Assembly (NCBI GenBank): GCA_964019135.1
Contig: OZ025248.1
Coordinates: 74,902,119 to 74,966,118, forward strand
Length of the DNA: 64,000 nucleotides
Origin: Arenicola marina
Lineage: Eukaryota; Annelida; Polychaeta; Arenicolidae
Direction of reading: 5' to 3'
Position numbers and translations under genes: made by a program. Under the pieces are notes generated by a model. It made no database searches and had not been told where the DNA came from. It worked only from the letters and a program-made list of their open reading frames with translations. This document shows, piece by piece, positions 1,738 to 63,617 of the stretch (position 1 is the stretch's first letter; every line of letters begins with the position of its first letter).

Positions 1738-1825
1738 TACAAAGGTCAACCCTCCACTTTGAATTGTCCAAAGCGGCCGGTGCGTGGTTCGACGCCCACT
1801 TGGGCAATACCTGCATGGTGGTGCG
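1738..1825 (+). mobile_element. SINE head (B box) leading into the 75-bp array
   Basis: GGTTCGACGCC at 1786-1796 is a B box. It lies 40 bp upstream of the first GGACAAAG of the array. In the intact-headed SINE at 39.9 kb the B box at 39990 lies 38 bp upstream of the matching GGATAAAG. The shared order and spacing indicate that the array grew from inside a SINE copy. Confidence 0.65.
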
Positions 1826-4199
1826 GGACAAAGATACCAGGTCTGTCTTCTGAAAGAGTAGGCGTTGTCTCCCGGAGATATGTACCTACATGGTGGTGCG
1901 GGATAAAGTTCCCAGGTCTGTCTTCTGAAAGAGTAGGCGTTGTCTCCCGGAGATATGTACCTACATGGTGGTGCGGGATAAAGTTACCAGGTCTGTCTTC
2001 TGAAAGAGTAGGCGTTGTCTTCCGGAGATATGTACCTACATGGTGGTGCGGGATAAAGTTACCAGGTCTGTCTTCTGAAAGAGTAGGCGTTGTCTCCCGG
2101 AGATATGTACCTACATGGTGGTGCGGGATAAAGTTACCAGGTCTGTCTTCTGAAAGAGTAGGCGTTGTCTTCCGGAGATATGTACCTACATGGTGGTGCG
2201 AGATAAAGTTACCAGGTCTGTCTTCTGAAAGAGTAGGCGTTGTCTTCCGGAGATATGTACCTACATGGTGGTGCGAGATAAAGTTACCAGGTCTGTCTTC
2301 TGAAAGAGTAGGCGTTGTCTTCCGGAGATATGTACCTACATGGTGGTGCGGGATAAAGTTCCCAGGTCTGTCTTCTGAAAGAGTAGGCGTTGTCTCCCGG
2401 AGATATGTACCTACATGGTGGTGCGGGATAAAGTTACCAGGTCTGTCTTCTGAAAGAGTAGGCGTTGTCTTCCGGAGATATGTACCTACATGGTGGTGCG
2501 GGATAAAGTTACCAGGTCTGTCTTCTGAAAGAGTAGGCGTTGTCTTCCGGAGATATGTACCTACATGGTGGTGCGGGATAAAGTTACCAGGTCTGTCTTC
2601 TGAAAGAGTAGGCGTTGTCTCCCGGAGATATGTACCTACATGGTGGTGCGGGATAAAGTTACCAGGTCTGTCTTCTGAAAGAGTAGGCGTTGTCTTCCGG
2701 AGATATGTACCTACATGGTGGTGCGGGATAAAGTTCCCAGGTCTGTCTTCTGAAAGAGTAGGCGTTGTCTTCCGGAGATATGTACCTACATGGTGGTGCG
2801 GGATAAATTTACCAGGTCTGTCTTCTGAAAGAGTAGGCGTTGTCTTCCGGAGATATGTACCTACATGGTGGTGCGGGATAAAGTTACCAGGTCTGTCTTC
2901 TGAAAGAGTAGGCGTTGTCTCCCGGAGATATGTACCTACATGGTGGTGCGGGATAAAGTTACCAGGTCTGTCTTCTGAAAGAGTAGGCGTTGTCTTCCGG
3001 AGATATGTACCTACATGGTGGTGCGGGATAAAGTTACCAGGTCTGTCTTCTGAAAGAGTAGGCGTTGTCTCCCGGAGATATGTACCTACATGGTGGTGCG
3101 GGATAAAGTTACCAGGTCTGTCTTCTGAAAGAGTAGGCGTTGTCTTCCGGAGATATGTACCTACATGGTGGTGCGGGATAAAGTTACCAGGTCTGTCTTC
3201 TGAAAGAGTAGGCGTTGTCTTCCGGAGATATGTACCTACATGGTGGTGCGGGATAAAGTTCCCAGGTCTGTCTTCTGAAAGAGTAGGCGTTATCTTCCGG
3301 AGATATGTACCTACATGGTGGTGCGGGACAAAGATACCAGGTATGTCTTCTGAAAGAGTAGGCGTTGTCTTCCGGAGATATGTACCTACATGGTGGTGCG
3401 GGATAAAGTTACCAGGTCTGTCTTCTGAAAGAGTAGGCGTTGTCTTCCGGAGATATGTACCTACATGGTGGTGCGGGATAAAGTTATCAGGTCTGTCTTC
3501 TGAAAGAGTAGGCGTTGTCTTCCGGAGATATGTACCTACATGGTGGTGCGGGATAAAGTTACCAGGTCTGTCTTCTGAAAGAGTAGGCGTTGTCTTCCGG
3601 AGATATGTACCTACATGGTGGTGCGGGATAAAGTTCCCAGGTCTGTCTTCTGAAAGAGTAGGCGTTGTCATCCGGAGATATGTACCTACATGGTGGTGCG
3701 GGATAAAGTTACCAGGTCTGTCTTCTGAAAGAGTAGGCGTTGTCTTCCGGAGATATGTACCTACATGGTGGTGCGGGATAAAGTTACCAGGTCTGTCTTC
3801 TGAAAGAGTAGGCGTTGTCTCCCGCAGATATGTACCTACATGGTGGTGCGGGATAAAGTTACCAGGTCTGTCTTCTGAAAGAGTAGGCGTTGTCTCCCGG
3901 AGATATGTACCTACATGGTGGTGCGGGATAAAGTTACCAGGTCTGTCTTCTGAAAGAGTAGGCGTTGTCTTCCGGAGATATGTACCTACATGGTGGTGCG
4001 GGATAAAATTACCAGGTCTGTCTTCTGAAAGAGTAGGCGTTGTCTTCCGGAGATATGTACCTACATGGTGGTGCGGGATAAAGTTACCAGGTCTGTCTTC
4101 TGAAAGAGTAGGCGTTGTCTCCCGGAGATATGTACCTACATGGTGGTGCGGGACAAAGATACCAGGTCTGTCTTCTGTAGGCGTTGTCTCCCGGAGATA
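1809..4199 (+). repeat. 75-bp minisatellite, about 32 units, SINE-derived
   Basis: Head-to-tail 75-bp units containing TACCTACATGGTGGTGCGGG and AAAGAGTAGGCGTTGTCTCC. Units differ by a few point variants (TCTCCCGG/TCTTCCGG, AAGTTACC/AAGTTCCC, GGGATA/GAGATA). The first, one internal (near 3327) and the last unit carry the GGGACAAAGATACC variant. The last unit is shortened. Because 75 is a multiple of 3 and the unit lacks stops in one frame on each strand, long open frames occur on both strands. The variants are mostly amino-acid changing in both frames, so protein coding is not supported. The unit matches the SINE core: GGATAAAGTTACCAGGTCTG here against GGATAAAGATCCCATGTCTT in the SINE at 40 kb. 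Confidence 0.9.
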
Positions 4200-4708
4200 G
4201 TACCATTTCGTCCCATAGCAGCTTGATAAGTATGAAGGATTAGTTAGAAGTCAGCAGTTATCAATGGCGCAATGATAAATTAGGACTTCAAAACACATGT
4301 TTAGGGGTCGTGTTCCTCGTTAGCCAGGCTGATGGCCGTTATCGATCAATGAACCGGTAGAAGGTTCATTCCGTTACTTGTACGTACGTCAGTGTTCCAC
4401 AATCAATAACATACGCGACAGCAAATATCCGGAGAAATGTAGAGCCGTTGTCGTTTACCAGGGTGGGTTTTCCTTGTCAACAGAAACAAAAGGCATGTGA
4501 AAAATGTCCTCATCCCACGTAGTGGGTGAGTGTGTAGGAGTGGAACGGGAAGTGCCAGCCATGATGAGGTGGTACAATGCACTCAGACACGATCCATTAT
4601 GAGGGGGCGGTGTACTGAGAAACGATGAAAACAAGGGATCACCCGAGCAAACCGAGAAGATATCCATCTTGGTATAACTTCATGGATGGATGGAATCGTT
4701 AGCATCAC
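4200..4708. other. Unique DNA between two minisatellites
   Basis: No convincing gene. A short open frame on the minus strand (4455-4667) has no recognisable features. No clear SINE 3' tail was found after the 75-bp array. Confidence 0.5.
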
Positions 4709-7700
4709 TGCAACCAGGATGAATAGCTAGGGCGCCTCGATATCACACACAACACCCACAGCAAACAGGATGAATACCTAGGGCGCCTCGATATCACACA
4801 CAACACCCACAGCAACCAGGATGAATACCTAGGGCGCCTCGATATCACACACAACATCCACTAAAAGCAGGATGAATAGCTAGGGCGCCTCGATATCACA
4901 CACAACACCCACAGCAACCAGGATGAATACCTAGGGCGCCTCGATATCACACACAACACCCACAGCAACCAGGATGAATAGCTAGGGGACCTCGATATCA
5001 CACACAACACCCACAGCAACCAGGATGAATAGCTAGGGCGCCTCGATATCACACACAACACCCACAGCAACCAGGATGAATACCTAGGGCGCCTCGATAT
5101 CACACACAACACCCACAGCAACCAGGATGAATACCTAGGGCGCCTCGATATCACACACAACACCCACAGCAACCAGGATGAATACCTAGGGCGCCTCGAT
5201 ATCACACACAACACCCACAGCAACCAGGATGAATACCTAGGGCGCCTCGATATCACACACAACACCCACAGCAACCAAGATGAATAGCTTGGGCGCCTCG
5301 ATATCACACACAACACCCACAGCAACCAGGATGAATAGCTAGGGCGCCTCGATATCACACACAACACCCACAGCAACCAAGATGAATAGCTAGGGCGCCT
5401 CGATATCACACACAACACCCACAGCAACCAGGATGAATAGCTAGGGCGCCTCGATATCACACACAACACCCACAGCAACCAGGATGAATACCTAGGGCGC
5501 CTCGATATCACACACAACACCCACTACAACCAGGATGAATACCTAGGGCGCCTCGATATCACACACAACACCCACTACAACCAGGATGAATACCTAGGGC
5601 GCCTCGATATCACACACAACACCCACAGCAACCAGGTCGAATAGCTAGGGCGCCTCGATATCACACACAACACCCACTAAAAGCAGGATGAATAGCTAGG
5701 GGACCTCGATATCACACACAACACCCACAGCAACCAGGATGAATACCTAGGGCACCTCGATATCACACACAACACCCACAGCAACCAGGATGAATACCTA
5801 GGGCGCCTCGATATCACACACAACACCCACAGCAACCAAGATGAATAGCTAGGGCGCGTCGATATCACACACAACACCCACAGCAACCAGGATGAATAGC
5901 TAGGGCACCTCGATATCACACACAACACCCACAGCAACCAGGATGAATACCTAGGGCGCCTCGATATCACACACAACACCCACTAAAAGCAGAATGAATA
6001 GCTAGGGGACCTCGATATCACACACAACACCCACAGCAACCAGGATGAATACCTAGGGCGCCTCGATATCACACACAACACCCACAGCAACCAGGATGAA
6101 TACCTAGGGCGCCTCGATATCACACACAACATCCACTAAAAGCAGGATGAATAGCTAGGGCGCCTCGATATCACACACAACACCCACAGCAACCAGGATG
6201 AATACCTAGGGCGCCTCGATATCACACACAACACCCACAACAACCAGGATGAATACCTAGGGCGCCTCGATATCACACACAACACCCACAGCAACCAAGA
6301 TGAATAGCTAGGGCGCCTCGATATCACACACAACACCCACAGCAACCAGGATGAATAGCTAGGGCGCCTCGATACCACACACAACACCCACTACAACCAG
6401 GATGAATAGCTAGGGCGCCTCGATATCACACACAACACCCACAGCAAACAGGATGAAAACCTAGGGCGCCTCGATATCACACACAACACCCACAGCAACC
6501 AGGATGAATACCTAGGGCGCCTCGATATCACACACAACACCCACAGCAACCAGGATGAATACCTAGGGCGCCTCGATATCACACACAACATCCACTAAAA
6601 GCAGGATGAATAGCTAGGGCGCCTCGATATCACACACAACACCCACAGCAACCAGGATGAATACCTAGGGCGCCTCGATATCACACACAACACCCACAGC
6701 AACCAGGATGAATACCTAGGGCGCTTCGATATCACACACAACACCCACAGCAACCAGGATGAATACCTAGGGCGCCTCGATATCACACACAACACCCACA
6801 GCAACCAAGATGAATAGCTAGGGCGCCTCGATATCACACACAACACCCACAGCAACCAGGATGAATACCTAGGGCGCCTCGATATCACACACAACACCCA
6901 CAGCAACCAGGATGAATACCTAGGGCGCCTCGATATCACACACAACACCCACAGCAACCAGGATGAATACCTAGGGCGCCTCGATATCACACACAACACC
7001 CACAGCAACCAGGATGAATACCTAGGGCGCCTCGATATCACACACAACACCCACAGCAACCAGGATGAATACCTAGGGCGCTTCGATATCACACACAACA
7101 CCCACAGCAACCAGGATGAATACCTAGGGCGCCTCGATATCACACACAACACCCACTACAACCAGGATGAATAGCTAGGGCGCCTCGATATCACACACAA
7201 CACCCACAGCAACCAGGATGAATACCTAGGGCGCCTCGATATCACACACAACACCCACAGCAACCAGGATGAATACCTAGGGCGCCTCGATATCACACAC
7301 AACACCCACAGCAACCAGGATGAATACCTAGGGCGCCTCGATATCACACACAACACCCACAGCAACCAGGATGAATACCTAGGGCGCCTCGATATCACAC
7401 ACAACACCCACAGCAACCAAGATGAATAGCTTGGGCGCCTCGATATCACACACAACACCCACAGCAACCAGGATGAATAGCTAGGGCGCCTCGATATCAC
7501 ACACAACACCCACAGCAACCAAGATGAATAGCTAGGGCGCCTCGATATCACACACAACACCCACAGCAACCAGGATGAATAGCTAGGGCGCCTCGATATC
7601 ACACACAACACCCACTAAAAGCAGGATGAATAGCTAGGGGACCTCGATATCACACACAACACCCACAGCAACCAGGATGAATACCTAGGGCGCCTCGATA

Positions 7701-10700
7701 TCACACACAACACCCACAGCAACCAAGATGAATAGCTAGGGCGCGTCGATATCACACACAACACCCACAGCAACCAGGATGAATAGCTAGGGCGCCTCGA
7801 TATCACACACACCACCCACTAAAAGCAGAATGAATAGCTAGGGGACCTCGATATCACACACAACACCCACAGCAACCAGGATGAATACCTAGGGCGCCTC
7901 GATATCACACACAACACCCACAGCAACCAGGATGAATACCTAGGGCGCCTCGATATCACACACAACATCCACTAAAAGCAGGATGAATAGCTAGGGCGCC
8001 TCGATATCACACACAACACCCACAGCAACCAGGATGAATACCTAGGGCGCCTCGATATCACACACAACACCCACAACAACCAGGATGAATACCTAGGGCG
8101 CCTCGATATCACACACAACACCCACAGCAACCAAGATGAATAGCTAGGGCGCCTCGATATCACACACAACACCCACAGCAACCAGGATGAATAGCTAGGG
8201 CGCCTCGATACCACACACAACACCCACTACAACCAGGATGAATAGCTAGGGCGCCTCGATATCACACACAACACCCACAGCAACCAGGATGAATACCTAG
8301 GGCGCCTCGATATCACACACAACACCCACAGCAACCAGGATGAATACCTAGGGCGCCTCGATATCACACACAACACCCACAGCAACCAGGATGAATACCT
8401 AGGGCGCCTCGATATCACACACAACACCCACAGCAACCAGGATGAATACCTAGGGCGCCTCGATATCACACACAACACCCACAGCAAACAGGATGAAAAC
8501 CTAGGGCGCCTCGATATCACACACAACACCCACAGCAACCAGGATGAATACCTAGGGCGCCTCGATATCACACACAACACCCACAGCAACCAGGATGAAT
8601 ACCTAGGGCGCCTCGATATCACACACAACATCCACTAAAAGCAGGATGAATAGCTAGGGCGCCTCGATATCACACACAACACCCACAGCAACCAGGATGA
8701 ATACCTAGGGCGCCTCGATATCACACACAACACCCACAGCAACCAGGATGAATACCTAGGGCGCCTCGATATCACACACAACACCCACAGCAACCAGGAT
8801 GAATACCTAGGGCGCCTCGATATCACACACAACACCCACAGCAACCAGGATGAATAGCTAGGGCGCCTCGATATCACACACAACACCCACAGCAACCAGG
8901 GTGAATAGCTAGGGCGCCTCGATATCACACACAACACCCACAGCAACCAGGATGAATACCTAGGGCGCCTCGATATCACACACAACACCCACAGCAACCA
9001 GGATGAATACCTAGGGCGCCTCGATATCACACACAACACCCACAGCAACCAGGATGAATACCTAGGGCGCCTCGATATCACACACAACACCCACAGCAAC
9101 CAGGATGAATACCTAGGGCGCCTCGATATCACACACAACACCCACAGCAACCAGGATGAATACCTAGGGCGCCTCGATATCACACACAACACTCACAGCA
9201 ACCAGGATGAATAGCTAGGGCGCCTCGATATCACACACAACACCCACAGCAACCAGGATGAATACCTAGGGCGCCTCGATATCACACACAACACCCACAG
9301 CAACCAGGATGAATAGCTAGGGCGCTTCGATATCACACACAACACCCACAGCAACCAGGATGAATAGCTAGGGCGCCTCGATATCACACACAACACCCAC
9401 AGCAACCAAGATGAATACCTAGGGCGCCTCGATATCACACACAACACCCACAGCAACCAGGATGAATACCTAGGGCGCCTCGATATCACACACAACACCC
9501 ACAGCAACCAGGATGAATACCTAGGGCGCCTCGATATCACACACAACACCCACAGCAACCAGGATGAATACCTAGGGCGCCTCGATATCACACACAACAC
9601 CCACAGCAACCAGGATGAATACCTAGGGCGCCTCGATATCACACACAACACCCACAGCAACCAGGATGAATACCTAGGGCGCCTCGATATCACACACAAC
9701 ACCCACAGCAACCAGGATGAATACCTAGGGCGCCTCGATATCACACACAACACCCACAGCAACCAGGATGAATACCTAGGGCGCCTCGATATCACACACA
9801 ACACCCACAGCAACCAGGATGAATAGCTAGGGCGCCTCGATATCACACACAACACCCACAGCAACCAGGATGAATAGCTAGGGCGCCTCGATATCACACA
9901 CAACACCCACAGCAACCAGGATGAATACCTAGGGCGCCTCGATATCACACACAACACCCACAGCAACCAGGATGAATAGCTAGGGCGCCTCGATATCACA
10001 CACAACACCCACAGCAACCAGGATGAATAGCTAGGGCGCCTCGATATCACACACAACACCCACAGCAACCAGGAGGAATACCTAGGGCGCCTCGATATCA
10101 CACACAACACCCACAGCAACCAGGATGAATACCTAGGGCGCCTCGATATCACACACAACACCCACTACAACCAGGATGAATACCTAGGGCGCCTCGATAT
10201 CACACACAACACCCACAGCAACCAGGATGAATAGCTAGGGCACCTCGATATCACACACAACACCCACTACAACCAGGATGAATAGCTCGGGCGCCTCGAT
10301 ATCACACACAACACCCACAGCAACCAGGATGAATAGCTAGGGCGCCTCGATACCACACACAACACCCACTACAACCAAGATGAATACCTAGGGCGCCTCG
10401 ATATCACACACAACACCCACAGCAACCAGGATGAATACCTAGGGCGCCTCGATATCACACACAACACCAACAGCAACCAGGATGAATAGCTAGGGCACCT
10501 CGGTATCACACACAACACCCACAGCAACCAGGATGAATAGCTAGGGCGCCTCGATATCACACACAACACCCACAGCAACCAGGATGAATACCTAGGGCGC
10601 CTCGATATCACACACAACACCCACAGCAACCAGGATGAATACCTAGGGCGCCTCGATATCACACACAACACCCACAGCAACCAGGATGAATAGCTAGGGC

Positions 10701-11143
10701 ACCTCGATATCACACACAACACCCACAGCAACCAAGATGAATACCTAGGGCGCCTCGATATCACACACAACACCCACAGCAACCAGGATGAATACCTAGG
10801 GCGCCTCGATATCACACACAACACCCACAGCAACCAGGATGAATACCTAGGGCGCCTCGATATCACACACAACACCCACAGCAACCAGGATGAATAGCTA
10901 GGGCGCCTCGATATCACACACAACACCCACAGCAACCAGGATGAATAGCTAGGGCGCCTCGATATCACACACAACACCCACAGCAACCAGGATGAATAGC
11001 TAGGGCGCCTCGATATCACACACAACACCCACAGCAACCAGGAGGAATACCTAGGGCGCCTCGATATCACACACAACACCCACAGCAACCAGGATGAATA
11101 GCTAGGGCGCCTCGATATCACACACAATAATCACTACATCCAG
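4709..11143. repeat. 51-bp minisatellite, about 126 units
   Basis: Units contain AGCAACCAGGATGAATACCT followed by AGGGCGCCTCGATATCACAC and ACAACACCCAC. The main variants are ATACCTAGG/ATAGCTAGG, GGGCGCC/GGGGACC, and marker units ending CACTAAAAGC or CACTACAACC. Minus-strand frames of 60-320 codons arise because 51 is a multiple of 3. The CACTAAAAGC and CACTACAACC marker units put stop codons in that frame. Higher-order copies exist: the block around 5981-6600 recurs 1836 bp (36 units) further right, around 7817-8440, with the same marker order. Terminal units near 11127 are degenerate. Confidence 0.95.
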
Positions 11144-39934: not shown

Positions 39935-40890
39935 TCAGTGGGCTAGAGAGCTCGCATTGAGTGCTCTGGTCACCTGAGCGTGGGTCGATGGTTCGAGCCC
40001 TGCTCTGGCCATGTCTGTGTGGTCGCAGGATAAAGATCCCATGTCTTTCTTCGTAAAGAGTAGGAGGTTAACCCCGGAGACATGGCTCCACCTTGGCGCA
40101 AGTGCCCCCAGGCAAGCCCGCTTCTCTAGGGGCACAACGGTAACAGTGTTAAAATCCTTCGACGTTAGTAGGGAATCGACTGTAGCTTTTATTATAATGT
40201 GGGCGCGTACAATAATAGTGCTTATGTATTCTATATACCTTGTTCTATCTCAAGAAAGTGTGTCAACACTAGATTGTTGCAGTCATATTTTCGCGAACAA
40301 ATGTTGGAGCATGCGACTTTTCCCTACCAACCGCCATGCGTATGCAGCGCCACCTGGCGAATCCCGCCACCATTTGTAGCCTGGGTCCCAAACTTTGTAA
40401 CAGTCCATGACCTGTGAAAGAGGGCGCTACTGTTGTCCCTAAGTTCAAAGTGAGCGACTGACAAGGCCCTCTAGCGGAGAGTCATATGCTAACGGAGAGG
40501 AGGAACCAAGTCGCATTCGCAGGTACCGGCATCCGCCCAAAACAAATATGGCGGACGGCTGGTCGGAAACAGTTGTGTGCTCCAACATTTCTTCGCGAAA
40601 ATATAACCGAAACAACCTAGTGTCGACACACTTTATTGATGTCAGATGATAGAACAAGGTATATAGAATACGTAAACACTATGATTGTTCGAGCACACGT
40701 AGTAATAAAAGCTACAGTCGATTCCCTACTAACGTCGAAGGATTTTAACATTGTTACCGTTGTGCCCCTAGAGAAGCGGGCTTGCCTGGGGGCACTTGCG
40801 CCAAGGCTCCACCCTCCCGGCCTTCCTTCTCCCATTGACGCGATATGACCGAAAGGGGTTAAAGCGTCCTGAATAACCAACCAACCAACC
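39935..40890 (+). mobile_element. tRNA-derived SINE (copy A), split by a fold-back insertion
   Basis: The head starts at GTGGGCTAGAGAGCTCGC (A box) with B box GGTTCGAGCCC at 39990-40000. The core includes GTGTGGTCGCAGGATAAAG, AAAGAGTAGGAGG and CCCCGGAGACATGGCTCCAC. The element is interrupted at 40092 and resumes at 40805 with GGCTCCACCCTCCCGG, then CCCATTGACGCGATATGACC and a 3' tail of (AACC)n near 40876-40890. Without the insert it is about 235 bp. Copies B and C lie at 62.8-63.6 kb. Confidence 0.85.
40092..40804. mobile_element. 713-bp fold-back element inside SINE copy A
   Basis: Ends CTTGGCGCAAGTGCCCCCAG and its inverse. The inverted arms run to roughly 240 bp with scattered mismatches (40092-40335 against about 40560-40804). 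The 8-bp GGCTCCAC occurs on both sides (40084-40091, 40805-40812), fitting a target duplication. Eight base pairs suits hAT-type integration, but the ends do not match a hAT consensus I know. No transposase. The centre (about 40320-40560) is related to the element at 37.6-37.8 kb. Confidence 0.8.
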
Positions 40891-46889: not shown

Positions 46890-47715
46890 TCGCTACCCAC
46901 CCCCACACCCATCCACCAGAACCATACACTCATCCCTCCCACCGCCTTGACCCACAATCGTCAGACTGATATACCCCCCCCCCCCCGCCCATCCACACCC
47001 ACCGTGCATGGGGGGGGCACAGGGGCACGTGCCCCCCTTTCCGACCCTAAGCCTGCTAAGGTATCTGTGCCCTGTGTGGAACAAATGATTGTGCCCCGCA
47101 CTCTTCAGGAATTCTTGAACACGCCCTAGCAGCACCAATTTGGTGGACTCCTCCCCCCCCCCCCTCCCCGTTCACCCACACCAACCAAATGTTAATGGAC
47201 TCATTTCTGCCCAGCCCCAACACCAACCGAGACCCATCAGAGTAGTAAACCACTGCCCTCTTCCCCCGCTCACTGGCACCAACCAAACTTACGCACTCTT
47301 GCCCGCACCTGCACGCCCCCCCCCCCCCCGAAGCCCGCTGACCCTCACATGACTCCATGAACTCCTGCCCCGCTCCATTTCCCCCGACCACCGAAGCCCG
47401 CCAGACCGATGTACCCTTGCCCCCCCCCCCCCATTCCCGCCAGACTGATGTACCCCTACCCCTCCCCCACCGTTCCCCACCAACACTACCATAATCCTGC
47501 CCCCCCCCCCCTCGCCCGCCGACATCACCACTCCTGCCCCACCTTCCAACACCCACCAGACTCAAGCTTTCTTGCCCCCCCCGCCCATCGACAGACACGT
47601 GCTTTGCTGGCCCCTGCCCCCCCCCGATCCTAGCACCCACCAGACTCTCCTGACCCGTGCACCTCCCCCCCCCCGTCCCAAGAGCCACCGGACTCATGCT
47701 ATCATGACCCCCGCC
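46890..47715 (+). repeat. C-rich degenerate repeat tract
   Basis: Long C runs with ACCAGACT-like motifs every 40-60 bp, for example near 46916, 46965, 47404, 47447 and 47553. It reads as an old, diverged flank of the minisatellite that follows. Open frames here are low-complexity artefacts. Confidence 0.7.
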
Positions 47716-48722
47716 CCCACGTCCTGACATTCACCAGACTATCCTGAAACCTGCCTCCCATCCCCCCGTCCTAACACCCACCAGACTCTCCTGGAACCTG
47801 CCTCCCATCCCCCCGTCCTAACACCCACCAGACTATCCTGGAACCTGCCTCCCATCCCCCCGTCCTAACACCCACCAGACTATCCTGGAACCTGCCTCCC
47901 ATCCCCCCGTCCTAACACCCACCAGACTATCCTGGAACCTGCCTCCCATCCCCCCGTCCTAACACCCACCAGACTATCCTGGCCCCTGCCTCCCATCCCC
48001 CCGTCCTAACACCCACCAGACTCTCCTGGCCCGTGCCCCCCGTCCTAACACCCACCAGACTCTCCTGGCCCGTGCCCCCCGCCCTAACACCCACCAGACT
48101 CTCCTGGCCTGTGCCCCCCGTCCTAACACCCACCAGACTCTCCTGGCCCGTGCCCCCCGTCCTAACACCCACCAGACTCTCCTGGCCCGTGCCCCCCGTC
48201 CTAACACCCACCAGACTCTCCTGGCCCGTGCCCCCCGTCCTAACACCCACCAGACTCTCCTGGCCCCTGCCTCCCATCCCCCCGTCCTAACACCCACCAG
48301 ACTCTCCTGGCCCGTGCCCCCTGTCCAAACACCCACCAGACTCTCCTGGCCCGTGCCCCCCGTCCTAACACCCACCAGACTCTCCTGGCCCGTGCCCCCC
48401 GTCCTAACACCCACCAGACTCTCCTGGCCCGTGCCCCCCGTCCTAACACCCACCAGACTCTCCTGGCCCGTGCCCCCCGTCCTAACACCCACCAGACTCT
48501 CCTGGCCCGTGCCCCCCGTCCTAACACCCACCAGACTATCCTGGCCCGTGCCCCCCGTCCTAACACCCACCAGACTCTCCTGGCCCGTGCCCCCCGTCCT
48601 AACACCCACCAGACTCTCCTGGCCCGTGCCCCCCGTCCTAACACCCACCAGACTCTCCTGGCCCGTGCCCCCCGTCCTAACACCCACCAGACTCTCCTGG
48701 CCCGTGCCCCCCGTCCTAACGT
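47716..48722 (+). repeat. C-rich minisatellite, 47-bp units then 39-bp units
   Basis: The first part (to about 48002) has units of about 47 bp: CCGTCCTAACACCCACCAGA, then CTATCCTGGAACCTGCCTCC and CATCCCC. From about 48002 the unit is 39 bp (CTCTCCTGGCCCGTGCCCC after the same start), roughly 18 copies, with one 47-bp reversion near 48240-48287. The 8-bp difference is the CTCCCATC-type insertion. 39 bp is a multiple of 3, giving open frames on both strands (VLTPTRLSWPVPP, 13 residues). Confidence 0.93.
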
Positions 48723-50989: not shown

Positions 50990-51947
50990 TACAAGAGGAT
51001 CAATACGAAAATTACAGCACATTCGACGATTCATTACTCCGTGCCACATATACAATACACTACAGCATGATCCATTACTTCATACCGTCTTTGTGAGAGT
51101 ACAGCATGATATTCTTACTGTTATGATGAATCTCATTGAAAAATGGTTTACGAGCTCTATTTACGACTTTATATTAAAAGGATCCCCTGTAAGGCCTAAC
51201 ACCACCGCAATGTTCCGGGTCCTTGTCGCCTTTGGCCGCTACTATCTGTAATAATGACAGCACAATTCGCAGATTAGTTCACATTCCACCAGTCTTAACC
51301 GAGACATCCCTTCACTGTCTCGATCGTTATGGGGATCTTACCATTAAGATTATAAGCTCGTAAACGATAGCAGGATTCATTACTCCGTGCCATATATACA
51401 ATACACTACAGCATGATCCATTACTTCATACCGTATATCTGAGAGTACAGCACGATATTCTTACTGTCATGATGAATCTCATTGAAAAATGGTTAAAAGG
51501 ATCCCCTGTTACAGTAAGGCCTACCACCGCCGCAATGTTCCAGGTCCTGGTCGATTTCGGCCGCTATCATCTGTAATAATGAAAGCACAATTCGAAGATT
51601 AGTTCACATTCCACCAGTCTTTACCGAGACATCCCTTCACTGTCTCGATCGTTATGGGGATCATACCATTAGGATTATAAGCTAGTAAACGATAGCCGGA
51701 TTCATTACTCCGTGCCATATATACAATACACTACAGCATGATCCATTACTTCATACCGTATATCTGAGAGTACAGCATGATATTCTTACTGTCATGATGA
51801 ATCTCATGGAAAAATGGTTTACGAGCTCTATTTACCACTTTATATTAAAAGGATACCCTGTAAGGCCTAACACCACCGCAATGTTCCAGGTCCTGGTCGC
51901 CTTTGGCCGCTACCATCTGTAATAATGACAGCACAATTCGCAGATTA

Positions 51948-52772
51948 CCGTCATTTACGTATGTTTTGGAACACCAAAAATGTCCCTATGTTTTGGAACA
52001 CCCCCAATTTTGGAAAAAATCATTATTTTTTGTGGCTGTATGTTTTGGAACACCACAGATGGTGGGTAATGTTTTTGTATCAATGATTTAGAACACCCTA
52101 ATTTTCCGAAAATAGATCTATTTATTTAAGTCGCGGCCGTGATGATATAAGACATATAACATTGAAATCGGTCTCAATAGTTTATTGATCGGTCCCAATA
52201 GTTTATTCGCGGTGGCCACGGTACCCGCGCGTTCATTGTATATATGTCTGGACTGCCTGACTGACCGCCTCTCCCCCCCCCCCCCCCCACCCCACCCATG
52301 ACTCGTGTACATTGTTTATGTCTGGGCTGCCTGACTGCTCTGTCTGCACCAACCTCCACCCCTGCCTAGACATGTGACGCGTATTTCTCCGCTTCTCTTC
52401 TCTCCATCAGAGCTGGTTGACCGACACTAATCTAAGTTTGTGACACCCCCCACCCCTCCCCTCCTTCTCGACCGGTCCCCTTACCCTCGTGCCAGGCTTT
52501 GTTTGACAGGAAGCAAGGAAGCCAAATACTGTGTGATGACCTTACCCCACCCTGCCCCTTACATGCGTCCTGTGGTGGCTACGGCTACGGAAGCTTTTGG
52601 GCTGACTGACCGTACAAGCCCCCTACCCCCCCCCCCCCTCCGCCCCATCCCCAAAAAAAGTATCAAAGTTTTGGAACAGTTGCAAAATTAATTCATTTTT
52701 TTGACTGTATGTTTTGGAACACCCAGGTTTGTAGTTATTTTTCGGGTGTTCCAAAACATACGTAAATGACGG
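51948..52772. mobile_element. TA-target DNA element in satellite, copy 1
   Basis: The ends CCGTCATTTACGTATGTTTT and inverse form TIRs of about 28 bp, extending to GGAACACC. The uninterrupted satellite reads CAGATTAGTTCAC. Here it reads CAGATTA-CCGTC..GACGG-TAGTTCAC, so the 2-bp TA is duplicated. TATGTTTTGGAACACC recurs at 51960, 51987, 52039 and 52708 and inverted at 52745, like subterminal transposase-binding sites. No transposase: non-autonomous. The centre is C-rich. Confidence 0.88.
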
Positions 52773-54514
52773 TAGTTCACATTCCACAAGTCTTTACCGA
52801 GACATTCCTTCACTGTCTCGATCGTTATGGGGATCATACCATTGAGATTATAAGCTCGTAAACGATAGCCGGATTCATTACTCCGTGCCATATATACAAT
52901 ACACTACAGCATGATCCATTACTTCATACCGTATGTCTGAGAGTACAGCATGATATTCTTACTTTCATGATGAATCTCATTGAAACATGGTTTACGAGCT
53001 CTTTTTACGACTTGATATTTTAAGGATCCCCTGTACAGTAAGGTCTACCACCGCCGCAATGTTCCAGGTCCTGGTCGATTTCGGCCGCTGTCATCTGTAA
53101 TAATGAAAGCACAATTCGAAGATTAGTTCACATTCCACCAGTCTTTACCGAGACATCCCTTCACTGTCTCGATCGTTATGGGGATCATACCATTAAGATT
53201 ATAAGCTCGTAAACGATAGCCGGATTCATTACTCCGTGCCATATATACAATACACTACAGCATGATCCATTACTTCATACCTTATATCTGAGAGTACAGC
53301 ATGAAATTCTTACTGTCATGATGAATCTCATTGAAACATGGTTTACGAGCTCTATGTACGACTTGATATTAAAAGGATCCCCTGTAAGGCCTAACACCAC
53401 CGCAATGTTCCAGGTCCTGGTCGCCTTTGGCCGCTACTGTCTGTAATAATGACAGCACAATTCGCAGATTAGTTCACATTCCACAAGTCTTTACCGAGAC
53501 ATTCCTTCACTGTCTCGATCGTTATGGGAATCATACCATTGAGATTATAAGCTCGTAAACGATAGCCGGATTCATTACTCCATGCCATATATACAAAACC
53601 CTACAGCATGATCCATTACTTCATACCGTATATCTGAAAGTACAGCATGATATTTTTACTGTCATGATGACTCTCATTGAAACATGGTTTACGAGCTCTA
53701 TTTACGACTTGATATTAAAAGGATCCCCTGTAAGGCCTAACACCACCGCAATGTTCCAGGTCCTGGTCGCCTTTGGCCGCTACTATCTGTAATAATGACA
53801 GCACAATTCGCAGATTAGTTCACATTCCACAAGTCTTTACCGAGACATTCCTTCACTGTCTCGATCGTTATGGGTATCATACCATTAAGATTATAAGCTC
53901 GTAAACGATAGCCGGATTCATTACTCCGTGCCATATATACACTACACTACAGCATGATCCATTACTTCACACCGTATATCTGAGAGTACAGCATGATATT
54001 CTTACTTTCATGATGAATCTCATTGAAACATGGTTTACGAGCTTATTTTACGACTTGATATTTTAAGGATCCCCTGTACAGTAAGGTCTACCACCGCCGC
54101 AATGTTCCAGGTCCTGGTCGATATCGGCCGCTGTCATCTGTAATAATGAAAGCACAATTCGAAGATTACTTCACATTCCACCAGTCTTTACCGAGACATC
54201 CCTTCACTGTCTCGATCGTTATGGGGATCATACCATTAAGATTATAAGCTCGTAAACGATAGCCGGATTCATTACTCCGTGCCATATATACAATACACTA
54301 CAGCATAATCCATTACTTCATACCGTATATCTGAGAGTACAGCATGATATTCTTACTGTCATGATGAATCTCATTGAAACATGGTTTCCGAGCTCTATTT
54401 ACGACTTGATATTAAAAGGATCCCCTGTAAGGCCTAACACCACCGCAATGTTCCAGGTCCTGGTCGCCTTTGGCCGCTACCATCTGTAATAATGACAGCA
54501 CAATTCGCAGATTA

Positions 54515-55338
54515 CCGTCATTTACGTATGTTTTGGAACACCAAAAATTTCCCTATGTTTTGGAACACCCCCAATTTTGGAAAAAATAATGATTTTTTGT
54601 GGCTGTATGTTTTGGAACACCACAGATGATGGGTAATTTTTTTGTATCAATGATTTAGAACACCCTAATTTTCCGAAAATAGATCTATTTATTTAAGTCG
54701 CGGCCGTGAAGATATAAGACATATAACATTGAAATCGGTCTCAATAGTTTATTGATCGGTCCCAATAGTTTATTCGCGGTGGCCACGGTACCCGCGCGTT
54801 CATTGTTTATATGTCTGGGCTGCCTGACTGACCGCCTCCCCCCACCCCCCGTCCCACCCATGACTCGTGTACATTGTTTATGTCTGGGCTGCCTGACTGC
54901 TCTGTCTGCACCAACCTCCACCCCTGCCTAGACATGTGACGCGTATTTCTCCGCTTCTCTTCTCTCCATCAGAGCTGGTTGACCGACACTAATCTAAGTT
55001 TGTGACACCCCCCACCCCTCCCCCTCCTTCTCAACCGGTCCCTTTACCCTCGTGCCAGGCTTTGTTTGACAGGAAGCAAGGAAGCCAAATACTGTGTGAT
55101 GACCTTACCCCACCCTGCCCCTTAAATGCATCCTGTGGTGGCTACGGCTACGGAAGCTTTTGGGGTGACTGACCGTACAAGCCCCCTACCCTTCCCCCCC
55201 CCCCTCCGCCCCATCCAAAAAAAAAGTATCAAAGTTTTGGAACAGCTGCAACATTAATTAATTTTTTTGACTGTATGTTTTGGAACACCCAGGTTTGTAA
55301 TTATTTTTCGGGTGTTCCAAAACATACGTAAATGACGG
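54515..55338. mobile_element. TA-target DNA element in satellite, copy 2
   Basis: Nearly identical to copy 1 over its whole length and at the same base of the monomer, 2567 bp downstream. Differences are limited to scattered substitutions and C-run length. The shared position means the satellite block carrying the element was duplicated, rather than the element inserting twice. Confidence 0.88.
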
Positions 55339-56709
55339 TAGTTCACATTCTACAAGTCTTTACCGAGACATCCCTTCACTGTCTCGATCGTTATGGGGAT
55401 CATACCATTGAGATTATAAGCTCGTAAACGATAGCCGGATTCATTACTCCGTGCCATATATACAATACACTACAGCATGATCCATTACTTCATACCGTAT
55501 ATCTGAGAGTAAAGCATGATATTCTTACTGTCATGATGAATCTCATTGAAACATGGTTTACGAGCTCTATTTACGACTTGATATTAAAAGGATCCCCTGT
55601 AAGGCCTAACACCACCGCAATGTTCCAGGTCCTGGTCGCCTTTGGCCGCTACTATCTGTAATAATGACAGCACAATTCGCAGATTAGTTCACATTCCACA
55701 AGTCTTTACCGAGACATTCCTTCACTGTCTCGATCGTTATGGGAATCATACCATTGAGATTATAGGCTCGTAAACGATAGCAGGATTCATTACTCCGTGC
55801 CATATATACAATACACTACAGCATGATCCATTACTTCATACCTTATATCTGAGAGTACAGCATGATATTCTTACTGTCATGATGAATCTCATGGAAAAAT
55901 GGTCTACGAGCTCTATGTACGACTTGATATTAAAAGGATCCCCTGTAAGGCCTAACACCACCGCAATGTTCCAGGTCCTGGTCGCCTTTGGCCGCTACTA
56001 TCTGTAATAATGACAGCACAATTCGCAGATTAGTTCACATTCCACAAGTCTTTACCGAGACATTCCTTCACTGTCTCGATCGTTATGGGTATCATACCAT
56101 TAAGATTATAAGCTCGTAAACGATAGCCGGATTCATTACTCCGTGCCATATATACAATACACTACAGCATGATCCATTACTTCACACCGTATATCTGAGA
56201 GTACAGCATGATATTCTTACTTTCATGATGAATCTCATTGAAACATGGTGAACGAGCTCTACTTAGGACTTGATATTAAAAGGATCCCCTGTACAGTAAG
56301 GCCTACCACCGCCGCAATGTTCCAGGTCCTGGTCGATTTCGGCCGCTATCATCTGTAATAATGAAAGCACAATTCGAAGATTAGTTCACGTTCCACCAGT
56401 CTTTACCGAGACATCCCTTCACTGTCTCGATCGTTATGGGGATCATACCATTAGGATTGTAAGCTCGTAAACGATAGCCGGGTTTATTACTCCGTGCCAT
56501 ATATACAATACTGTTAAAGTGCCTTCTGACACCACTTTTTGGTTCTCTCGTCGGGCCGCGTAGTAAAATTCAACACATGTCGTTCTTTTCTCAGCTTTAT
56601 TTCACAATAATATTCCATGCCACACGATCCGTCTATCTCTCTCTCTGTCTCTCTCAAGTCTCTCCCGTTCTCCTGGTCTTCCCTTATTTATACGTCTCTC
56701 TCTCGCCCC

Positions 56710-62462: not shown

Positions 62463-62864
62463 GATATGGGTCTCCGTTGAACTCACAACCAAGCTTCTAC
62501 AAACAAAACATCCATCGGTCACCAACATCACTGTTCATTACGGTCAACCAGACGCCATACCAGGCCAGCGTCATCAAATAGCTGGCGACTGACTCCGTGT
62601 TAGACAAGAAACTGGTAAGAGCGATTAATTTCACCTGTACCGTGGTCCGCCGCCCAAGCGACTAGTTACGAGTAGCTAGTTGTTCAATTGTTGCTCACTT
62701 CAACTGGCAAGTTTGTTGGTTGTAGTCTTTATATCCATTGTGGCAGTGCCTCCATAAAAACCTCCAGTGGGCTAGAGCGCTTGCCTTGAGTGCTCTCGCC
62801 ACCTCAGAGCCTAACGGCACGTGGATCGGTAGTTCGCGCCCCGCTGTGGCCAGGTCTGTGTGGT

Positions 62865-63124
62865 TGGTTGTTTTTTGAGGACGCTTTAACCATTTTTGGT
62901 CATATCGCGTCAATGGGAGAAGAAATGGAGAGTGGAGACATGTCCCCGGCTTAAGCCCCAACTCTTTACGAAGAAAGATATGGGATCTTTATCTTGCGAC
63001 CACACAGACATGGCCATAGGTAGCAGGGCTCAAACCACCGATCCACGTTCCGTTAGGCTCTCAGGTGGCCAGAGCACTCAAGGCGAGCCCTCTAACCCAA
63101 TGAGCTCTCGCGCCGGCCCCCATT
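62865..63124 (-). mobile_element. Uninterrupted SINE copy C, inserted in copy B
   Basis: 260 bp on the minus strand with head, core (CAAGATAAAGATCCCATATC), GACATGTCTCCACTCTCC, ATTGACGCGATATGACC and an A/C-rich 3' tail (AAAAAACAACCA). Flanked by an 11-bp direct repeat GTCTGTGTGGT (62854-62864, 63125-63135). It shows the uninterrupted SINE order at the place where copies A and B carry inserts. Confidence 0.88.
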
Positions 63125-63202
63125 GTCTGTGTGGTCCCAGGATAAAGATCCTATGTCCTTCTTCTCAAAGAGTAGGGGATTACCCCCTTGGACATGGCTC
63201 CA

Positions 63203-63550
63203 TTGGGAGCAGTACAACTCCCCCTCGACCATTCCCCCTCGGACAATGCCCGCCTAGGACAAGTCCCCCCTGGACAACTCCCCTCCGCCCCCCCCCCCCA
63301 CCCCGGACAACTCCCGCCCCCCCTCCCCCCTCCCCCGGACGGCAACTCCCTCCCGGACAACTCCGTACCGGACCTCTACCTTCCGGATAATTTCCCCCTA
63401 GCGGAATTGTCTCGGTGCGGGGGTTGTCTGGGGAGGAATTGTCCGGAGAAACCTGCCCGGGGGGGACACTTGGGGGGGGGGGACTTGTCTGACGGGGATT
63501 GTGGGGGGGGGGGGAATTGTCCGGGGTGGGGGGGTAGTTGTCCTAGAACC
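63203..63550. repeat. 348-bp G/C-rich insert in SINE copy B
   Basis: Flanked by GGCTCCA at 63196-63202 and 63551-63557. The left half repeats GGACAACTCCCC-like motifs (GGACAAGTCCCC, GGACAACTCCCG). The right half carries the same motif inverted (GGGGACTTGTC, GGAATTGTCC, AGTTGTCC), making a rough giant hairpin. No coding evidence. Confidence 0.75.
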
Positions 63551-63617
63551 GGCTCCACTCTCCCTTTCTTCTCTCATTGACGCGATATGACCAAAAGTGG
63601 TTAAAGCATTCTGAATG

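What the first reader, a model, noticed from the sequence alone, without database searches (positions are those of the whole stretch)
1738..4199. A SINE body amplified into a 32-copy minisatellite
The 75-bp unit aligns with the core of the tRNA-headed SINE seen at 40 and 63 kb (GGATAAAG, AAAGAGTAGG, CCGGAGA.ATG in the same order). A B box lies 40 bp before the first unit, against 38 bp in the SINE. In SINE copy A the matching segment is bounded by CATG at 40010 and 40081, 71 bp apart, so a first duplication through this microhomology is plausible. The birth of a tandem array from inside a SINE is rarely this legible.
Basis: partly seen in the sequence, partly recalled or inferred. Interest (0 to 1): 0.72.

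Follow-up and report, generated by a model that had tools for sequence, protein, structure and literature searches.

The report
Minisatellite grown inside a SINE copy

Summary
The array is real: 32 units of about 75 bp at 1808-4200. A second family in the same genome (here "SINE-II": same core, another tRNA-like head) fits better: 53/68 ungapped, z 14.6. Flank and first unit form one collinear SINE-II alignment with a B box. The array is bounded by TACC...TACC rather than CATG. An exact-motif search gave 26 tandem places; of 25 tested, 17 (this array included) look SINE-derived, two barely, and 7 keep SINE sequence on both sides. A head word also forms arrays, so the core is not shown to be a hotspot. 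New member of a known kind (Alu, B1 and squamate SINE-derived repeats).

The parts
1768..1807 (+). Remnant of the parent SINE-II copy (second half of the tRNA-like head), directly 5' of the array
   Evidence: 35/40 ungapped identity to SINE-II consensus 59-98, 0 of 1000 shuffles reach the score; no match to SINE-I (507 of 1000 shuffles reach it); BLAST alignment runs from 1768 to 1882 through unit 1 (79% over 115 bp, E 2e-19)
1786..1796 (+). B box (GGTTCGANNCC; motif recalled)
   Evidence: exact match to the pattern; no A-box pattern in 1740-1830
1808..4200 (+). Tandem array, 32 units of about 75 bp, derived from the SINE-II core
   Evidence: in the genome search the unit was found in tandem only here (4 first-look candidates, lower bound)
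1808..1882 (+). First unit; carries a variant (C at column 22, A at column 27) shared only with units 21 and 32
4133..4200 (+). Last unit, 68 bp, with 6-bp and 1-bp losses and the same variant
1808..1811 (+). TACC, left member of the direct repeat that bounds the array
   Evidence: read directly
4201..4204 (+). TACC, right member of the direct repeat that bounds the array
   Evidence: read directly
39935..40091 (+).
   Evidence: 90.5% to SINE-I consensus 18-186; tail match 40798-40878; insertion with inverted ends
62870..63120 (-).
   Evidence: 88% to SINE-I 1-248; fragments 62765-62866, 63124-63204, 63530-63616

Best explanation
One old copy of a tRNA-headed SINE (SINE-II) suffered a tandem duplication of about 75 bp of its core between two chance copies of the 4-bp word TACC, by slippage or a similar copying error. 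Once two units existed, the array grew by further slippage or unequal exchange to 32 units, mainly through an inner variant, so that the first and last units still share an older form. The array most likely has no function of its own. Shown: SINE-II similarity of the unit and of the 5' flank, one locus in the search made, TACC at both edges, a variant shared by first, last and one inner unit, and sister SINE copies with about 2 to 13 internal units. Inferred: that TACC pairing caused the first duplication, the mode of growth, and lack of function.
For: Unit vs SINE-II 53/68 ungapped, score 205 vs shuffle max 102 of 2000. The 5' flank and first unit form one alignment to SINE-II 59-172, 79%, E 2e-19. 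Of 35 genome matches to the unit, 32 are this array and the other 3 are single SINE-II-like copies at 78-79% (read). TACC bounds the array on both sides, 32 units apart; by my own arithmetic a run of 4 or more shared bases at a random junction has a chance of about 1.6%. Units 1, 21 and 32 share C22/A27, A27 being the SINE state. Sister loci: of 26 places with two exact AAAGAGTAGG words 65-85 bp apart (my grouping), 25 were tested and 17, this array included, score above all 500 shuffles with the search word masked. Of 17 fetched sister stretches (L072-L088), 16 have BLAST hits to a SINE at E <= 0.01, and 7 (L072, L075, L077, L079, L080, L081, L085) have SINE sequence on both sides of the repeats, with TRF copy numbers from 1.9 to 13.1.
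Against: The 3' flank does not clearly continue into a SINE tail: the local score is reached by 373 of 1000 shuffles, the end-free score by 95 of 2000. The first 58 bp of the head are not recognisable (1961 of 2000 shuffles). TACC is only 4 bp, was noticed after the fact, and the SINE-II consensus has no TACC at the left edge, so it would be a private change of this copy. The first unit is not closest to SINE-II overall (14 differences; the full units range from 13 to 16) and C22 is not the SINE state, so 'older edge units' is a weak inference. The SINE-I core also matches the unit strongly. The copy number rests on one assembly.
Confidence: 0.82

Rival explanations
1. One reading: the array arose from a SINE-I copy by a duplication through CATG at the two ends of the core.
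For: The SINE-I core also resembles the unit (55/75 with gaps, score 191 vs shuffle max 120), and in that alignment the CATG words pair. A SINE-I dimer of 71 bp with its junction at CATG exists at C19:19.52 Mb (L072).
Against: The 5' flank matches SINE-II (0 of 1000 shuffles) and not SINE-I (507 of 1000); the unit aligns to SINE-II without gaps and to SINE-I with two. The array's edges carry TACC. A genome search for the SINE-I CATG junction (26 letters, up to 3 mismatches) gave 18 places, of which only the C19 one reads to me as a core-to-core junction; the others were judged by eye from the printed text.
Confidence: 0.06
2. A dimeric or multimeric SINE-II subfamily spread by retroposition, and this array grew from a copy that was already dimeric when it inserted.
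For: At C3:4.06 Mb (L073) an 81-bp SINE-II array joins similar points of the SINE (TTTACC next to ATGGTGCAGG).
Against: The unit search found no dispersed copies beyond 3 single ones (lower bound). The two units differ in length, and the C3 unit keeps the stretch before TACC that is missing here (read).
Confidence: 0.07
3. Chance or convergent similarity between an unrelated minisatellite and the SINE core.
For: Minisatellites are common in this window; four others and three longer repeats were tested and show no SINE similarity.
Against: z 14.6 for the unit and an independent match in the flank.
Confidence: 0.01
4. Assembly artefact: the locus has far fewer units in the real chromosome.
For: Not testable here; no reads.
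Against: Units carry distinct variants (12 variable columns), so the array is not simply one unit copied by the assembler.
Confidence: 0.04

Closest known systems
SINE-derived satellites (sSat) of squamate reptiles, Vassetzky et al. 2023, PMC10702118 (parts 1-4 of 5 of the text read)
   Same: Tandem arrays of about 70-290 nt (67 in snakes) cut from part of a tRNA-derived SINE, longer terminal units that keep more of the SINE, few to hundreds of units, different segments amplified at different loci, independent origins.
   Different: The major reptile sSats sit at many loci with one dominant unit; here the arrays that I read mostly have their own break points. The authors say it is uncertain whether the phenomenon is restricted to squamates; the host here is not named.
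Alu- and B1-derived minisatellites (Jurka and Gentles 2006; Bois et al. 1998; seen only as cited in PMC9659126 and PMC6947457, passages read)
   Same: Minisatellites grown from inside SINE copies.
   Different: Other SINE families and other units.
TE-derived tandem repeats of the human genome, Ahmed and Liang 2012, PMC3389668 (abstract and outline seen)
   Same: At least 7,276 tandem repeats (23% of minisatellites/satellites) derived from transposable elements.
   Different: A survey; its abstract says the postulated start mechanisms explain only 6% of cases.
Minisatellite birth between short direct repeats, Haber and Louis 1998 (seen as cited in PMC6947457, passages read)
   Same: Unit flanked by very short repeats; first duplication by slippage or unequal exchange.
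   Different: 5-10 bp repeats are described there; here 4 bp.

Membership tests
tRNA-derived SINE (parent element) | B box (and A box) of an RNA polymerase III promoter in the head | tested here: met
   GGTTCGANNCC in both consensuses; in the head the A-box pattern was found only in SINE-II; ARAGORN calls no intact tRNA in either. Box patterns are recalled.
tRNA-derived SINE (parent element) | Target-site duplications around dispersed copies | tested here: inconclusive
   SINE-I: 8 of 10 near-full-length copies have an exact direct repeat of 8-22 bp near the ends at p <= 0.02; those of L099 and L102 are not clearly placed as target-site duplications, L104 (6 bp, p 0.33) and L108 have none to speak of. 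Not tested for SINE-II, the proposed parent.
tRNA-derived SINE (parent element) | Many dispersed copies | tested here: met
SINE-derived tandem repeat | Tandem unit corresponds to part of a SINE, beyond chance | tested here: met
SINE-derived tandem repeat | A terminal unit continues into more of the SINE on at least one side | tested here: met
   5' side, 1768-1882; 3' side inconclusive (95 of 2000 shuffles)
Major squamate sSat (such as the snake type) | Same unit at many loci, homogenised between loci | tested here: not met
   Unit found at one locus in the search made; the reptile paper also reports low-copy loci without this feature, so I do not take it as defining for the wider class.
Major squamate sSat (such as the snake type) | Subtelomeric preference | tested here: inconclusive
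   This array lies about 2.1 Mb from the end of a 77.0-Mb contig; sister places lie on many contigs; no statistics done.
Minisatellite born between short direct repeats | Short direct repeat at both edges of the unit | tested here: met
   TACC at 1808 and 4201, but only 4 bp against the 5-10 bp described

The most novel reading that the evidence does not exclude
This genome holds a graded series of minisatellite births from two SINE families that share a core: SINE copies with about 2, 3, 7, 9 and 13 internal units, a C3 array of at least 3.9 kb whose 30-bp unit is cut exactly between two CCATGTCT words of SINE-I, and at least two different SINE-I copies that broke at nearly the same two points. 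If the break points are predicted by short direct repeats in the SINE consensus, the start of tandem arrays becomes a countable, testable event here.
Probability: 0.4. Interest if true: 0.5.

Novelty: new member of a known kind. Interest (0 to 1): 0.34.

Why it matters
How the first duplication of a minisatellite happens is rarely seen, because arrays tend to overwrite their own origin. A high-copy SINE gives many equal starting points, so break points and array lengths can be compared across copies of known starting sequence. The reptile study left open whether SINE-derived satellites occur outside squamates (human and mouse SINE-derived minisatellites are cited in reviews).

Tried and rejected

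Core as hotspot: not shown. A head word of SINE-I (GAGTGCTCTGG) at 56-86 bp spacing gave 325 places, control 1; only the first places are listed, in 7 clusters on C1-C3. Core words gave 100 (control 30) and 1295 (control 1); in the latter all listed places after the first 10 lie in one C3 array. Raw counts are not normalised by copy number.

Higher-order structure in the array: lags 1-12 of unit similarity do not stand out (58 or more of 500 permutations reach the observed value at each lag).

Other repeats of the window as SINE-derived: four minisatellites (51, 30, 39, 43 bp) and three longer repeats tested, none beyond its shuffles (lowest 16 of 200).

Rfam: no family at gathering score in the window. 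ARAGORN: no tRNA in the window.

Known SINE superfamilies: one paper search (MetaSINE, Meta-domain) was seen as a listing only and gave no core sequence; the core was not compared with named domains.

Paper searches on SINE-derived satellites and minisatellite origin gave the reptile paper and reviews in the listings; I cannot say whether this genome's arrays are in print, since its name is withheld.

Test flaws: two of the 8 negative places (C1:33.98 and C1:34.00 Mb) were cut wrongly, so their rows mean nothing; the printed unit of the first was retested (313 of 500 shuffles reach it), the second prints the same unit and was not retested. C1:20.81 Mb, negative, was reached by 13 of 500 shuffles. 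L087 (100 vs max 93) and L088 (116 vs max 111) are borderline positives; shuffles keep single-letter composition only. One of the 26 places (C13:32.88 Mb, same printed text as C3:39.62 Mb) was not tested. All these places were found with a core word, so their segments are biased to the core.

Full report
Observation. The window holds a tandem array of 32 units at 1808-4200: 31 units of 75 bp and a last one of 68 bp. The full units are 97.8% alike on average and vary in 12 of 75 columns. The window lies at C1:74902119-74966118 of an unnamed 867-Mb genome in 762 contigs, about 2.1 Mb from the end of a 77.0-Mb contig.

Two SINE families share the core. Copy A and 20 of the other 39 were aligned: this is SINE-I, about 250 bp, with a B box, a tail of ACCA repeats and, in 8 of 10 copies tested, an exact direct repeat of 8-22 bp near the ends. 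A search with the unit gave 35 matches: the 32 units of this array and 3 single copies at 78-79%. The three belong to a second family with the same core and a similar 3' part but another head. A search with one of them gave 40 scored matches (2098 candidates); 20 of these plus the three were aligned to give SINE-II.

The parent is most likely SINE-II. Against SINE-II the unit aligns over 68 bp without a gap, 53 identical, score 205 against a maximum of 102 in 2000 dinucleotide shuffles; against SINE-I it needs two gaps (55 of 75 columns, score 191, shuffle maximum 120). The flank decides: the 40 bp before the array are 35/40 identical to SINE-II 59-98 (0 of 1000 shuffles), while SINE-I does no better than shuffles (507 of 1000). 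BLAST joins flank and first unit in one alignment, 1768-1882 to SINE-II 59-172, 79%, E 2e-19; its SINE-I match there is weaker (71% over 104 bp, E 2e-11). The rest of the head is not recognisable (1961 of 2000 shuffles), and the 3' flank is inconclusive (373 of 1000; 95 of 2000).

Junction. The array begins with TACC (1808-1811) and is followed by TACC (4201-4204); the bases before and after differ, so the shared word is 4 bp. A shared run of 4 or more at a random junction has a chance of about 1.6% by my arithmetic, so this is suggestive only. The SINE-II consensus has TACC on the right, 9 bp further out, and none on the left (read). In the SINE-II alignment the unit's ATG lies on the ATG of TATG; in the gapped SINE-I alignment its CATG lies on SINE-I's CATG.

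Growth. Units 1, 21 and 32 share two variants (C22, A27), of which A27 is the SINE state and C22 is not; the other 29 units carry T at both. This suggests that the outer units keep an older form and the inner ones descend from a variant. Against it, the first unit is not closest to SINE-II overall (14 differences; the full units range from 13 to 16). No repeat period above one unit stands out.

Sister loci. Two exact AAAGAGTAGG words 65-85 bp apart gave 100 matches (control 30), which I group into 26 places. Seventeen further places were fetched as stretches L072-L088; 16 of these 17 have BLAST hits to a SINE consensus at E <= 0.01, L084 has none. With the search word masked, 17 of 25 places tested, this array included, score above all 500 shuffles, two of them barely; 8 do not, two of which were cut wrongly (retests). 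Seven have SINE sequence on both sides in BLAST: L072 (2.0 units of 71 bp), L081 (3.1 of 36), L077 (2.4 of 68), L085 (6.7 of 35), L080 (9.1 of 40), L075 (13.1 of 85) and L079 (1.9 of 84, more complex) (copy numbers). L081 and L085 join nearly the same two points of SINE-I in different copies. A search for the SINE-I CATG junction with up to 3 mismatches gave 18 places (control 0), of which only L072's reads as such a junction by eye.

No core hotspot shown. A second core word gave 1295 matches (control 1); of the listed ones, all after the first 10 lie in one array on C3 from 5130750 to at least 5134689, with a 30-bp unit that equals, but for one base, the SINE-I segment between two CCATGTCT words (the words start at 40009 and 40039 of copy A). 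Its edges could not be read, and one search did not settle them. A head word gave 325 matches with a control of 1, so the head forms arrays too. None of these counts is normalised by copy number.

Fold. The SINE-I core folds better than shuffles, the SINE-II core and the unit do not, so a hairpin is not part of the explanation for this array.

Known context. SINE-derived satellites of squamates (PMC10702118, parts 1-4 of 5 read) match in most respects: part of a tRNA-headed SINE, units of about 70-290 nt, longer terminal units, few to hundreds of units. That paper leaves open whether they occur outside squamates. A review (PMC9659126, passages) cites minisatellites from Alu and B1, and 7,276 human tandem repeats from transposable elements (PMC3389668, abstract and outline). 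Another review (PMC6947457, passages) gives the short-direct-repeat model of Haber and Louis. The window's array is therefore a new member of a known kind, with a corrected parent and junction.

Noticed in passing
window 40092-40804: SINE-I copy A is interrupted by an insertion of about 713 bp whose two halves are inverted copies (about the first 104 bp differ at one base), flanked by the 8-bp direct repeat GGCTCCAC: a foldback-like DNA element.
   Followed up: partly
G000:C3:5130750-5134689 and beyond: A 30-bp satellite CAGGATAAAGATCCCATGTCTGTGTGGTCA, listed over 3.9 kb (1239 reverse matches genome-wide, not all listed), nearly equal to the SINE-I segment between two CCATGTCT words. Edges not read.
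   Followed up: partly
G000:C1:1709974 and C2:17473660; also C3:12012259, C3:16371055, C3:56354582: Tandem arrays at 60-67 bp steps found with a SINE-I head word; the text printed for the first two reads like the SINE-I head by eye, the other three are known by position only.
   Followed up: no
L073 (G000:C3:4062600-4063800): An 81-bp SINE-II array of about 9 units that joins points similar to those of the window's array, with alternating unit variants.
   Followed up: partly
L091-L094, L097 and window 47620-48720: A group of SINE-I copies shares flanks beyond the SINE; the 3' flank holds text close to CCCCCCGTCCTAACACCCACCAGACTCTCC of the window's 39-bp array, so a SINE seems to ride inside a larger repeat related to that array (by eye).
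   Followed up: no
window 62765-63616: Four SINE-I pieces in both orientations, with C- and G-rich GGACAA-type repeats between them at about 63220-63543.
   Followed up: no
window 4706-11127 and 12681-35477: Two large minisatellites (51 bp x 126; 30 bp x about 748) with no SINE similarity; the second fills about a third of the window.
   Followed up: partly
window 51189-56511: 346-bp repeats in two blocks of 5.0 and 3.4 copies (52773-54514, 55339-56511) and a 325-bp block of 1.9 copies at 51189-51819 whose printed units share text.
   Followed up: no
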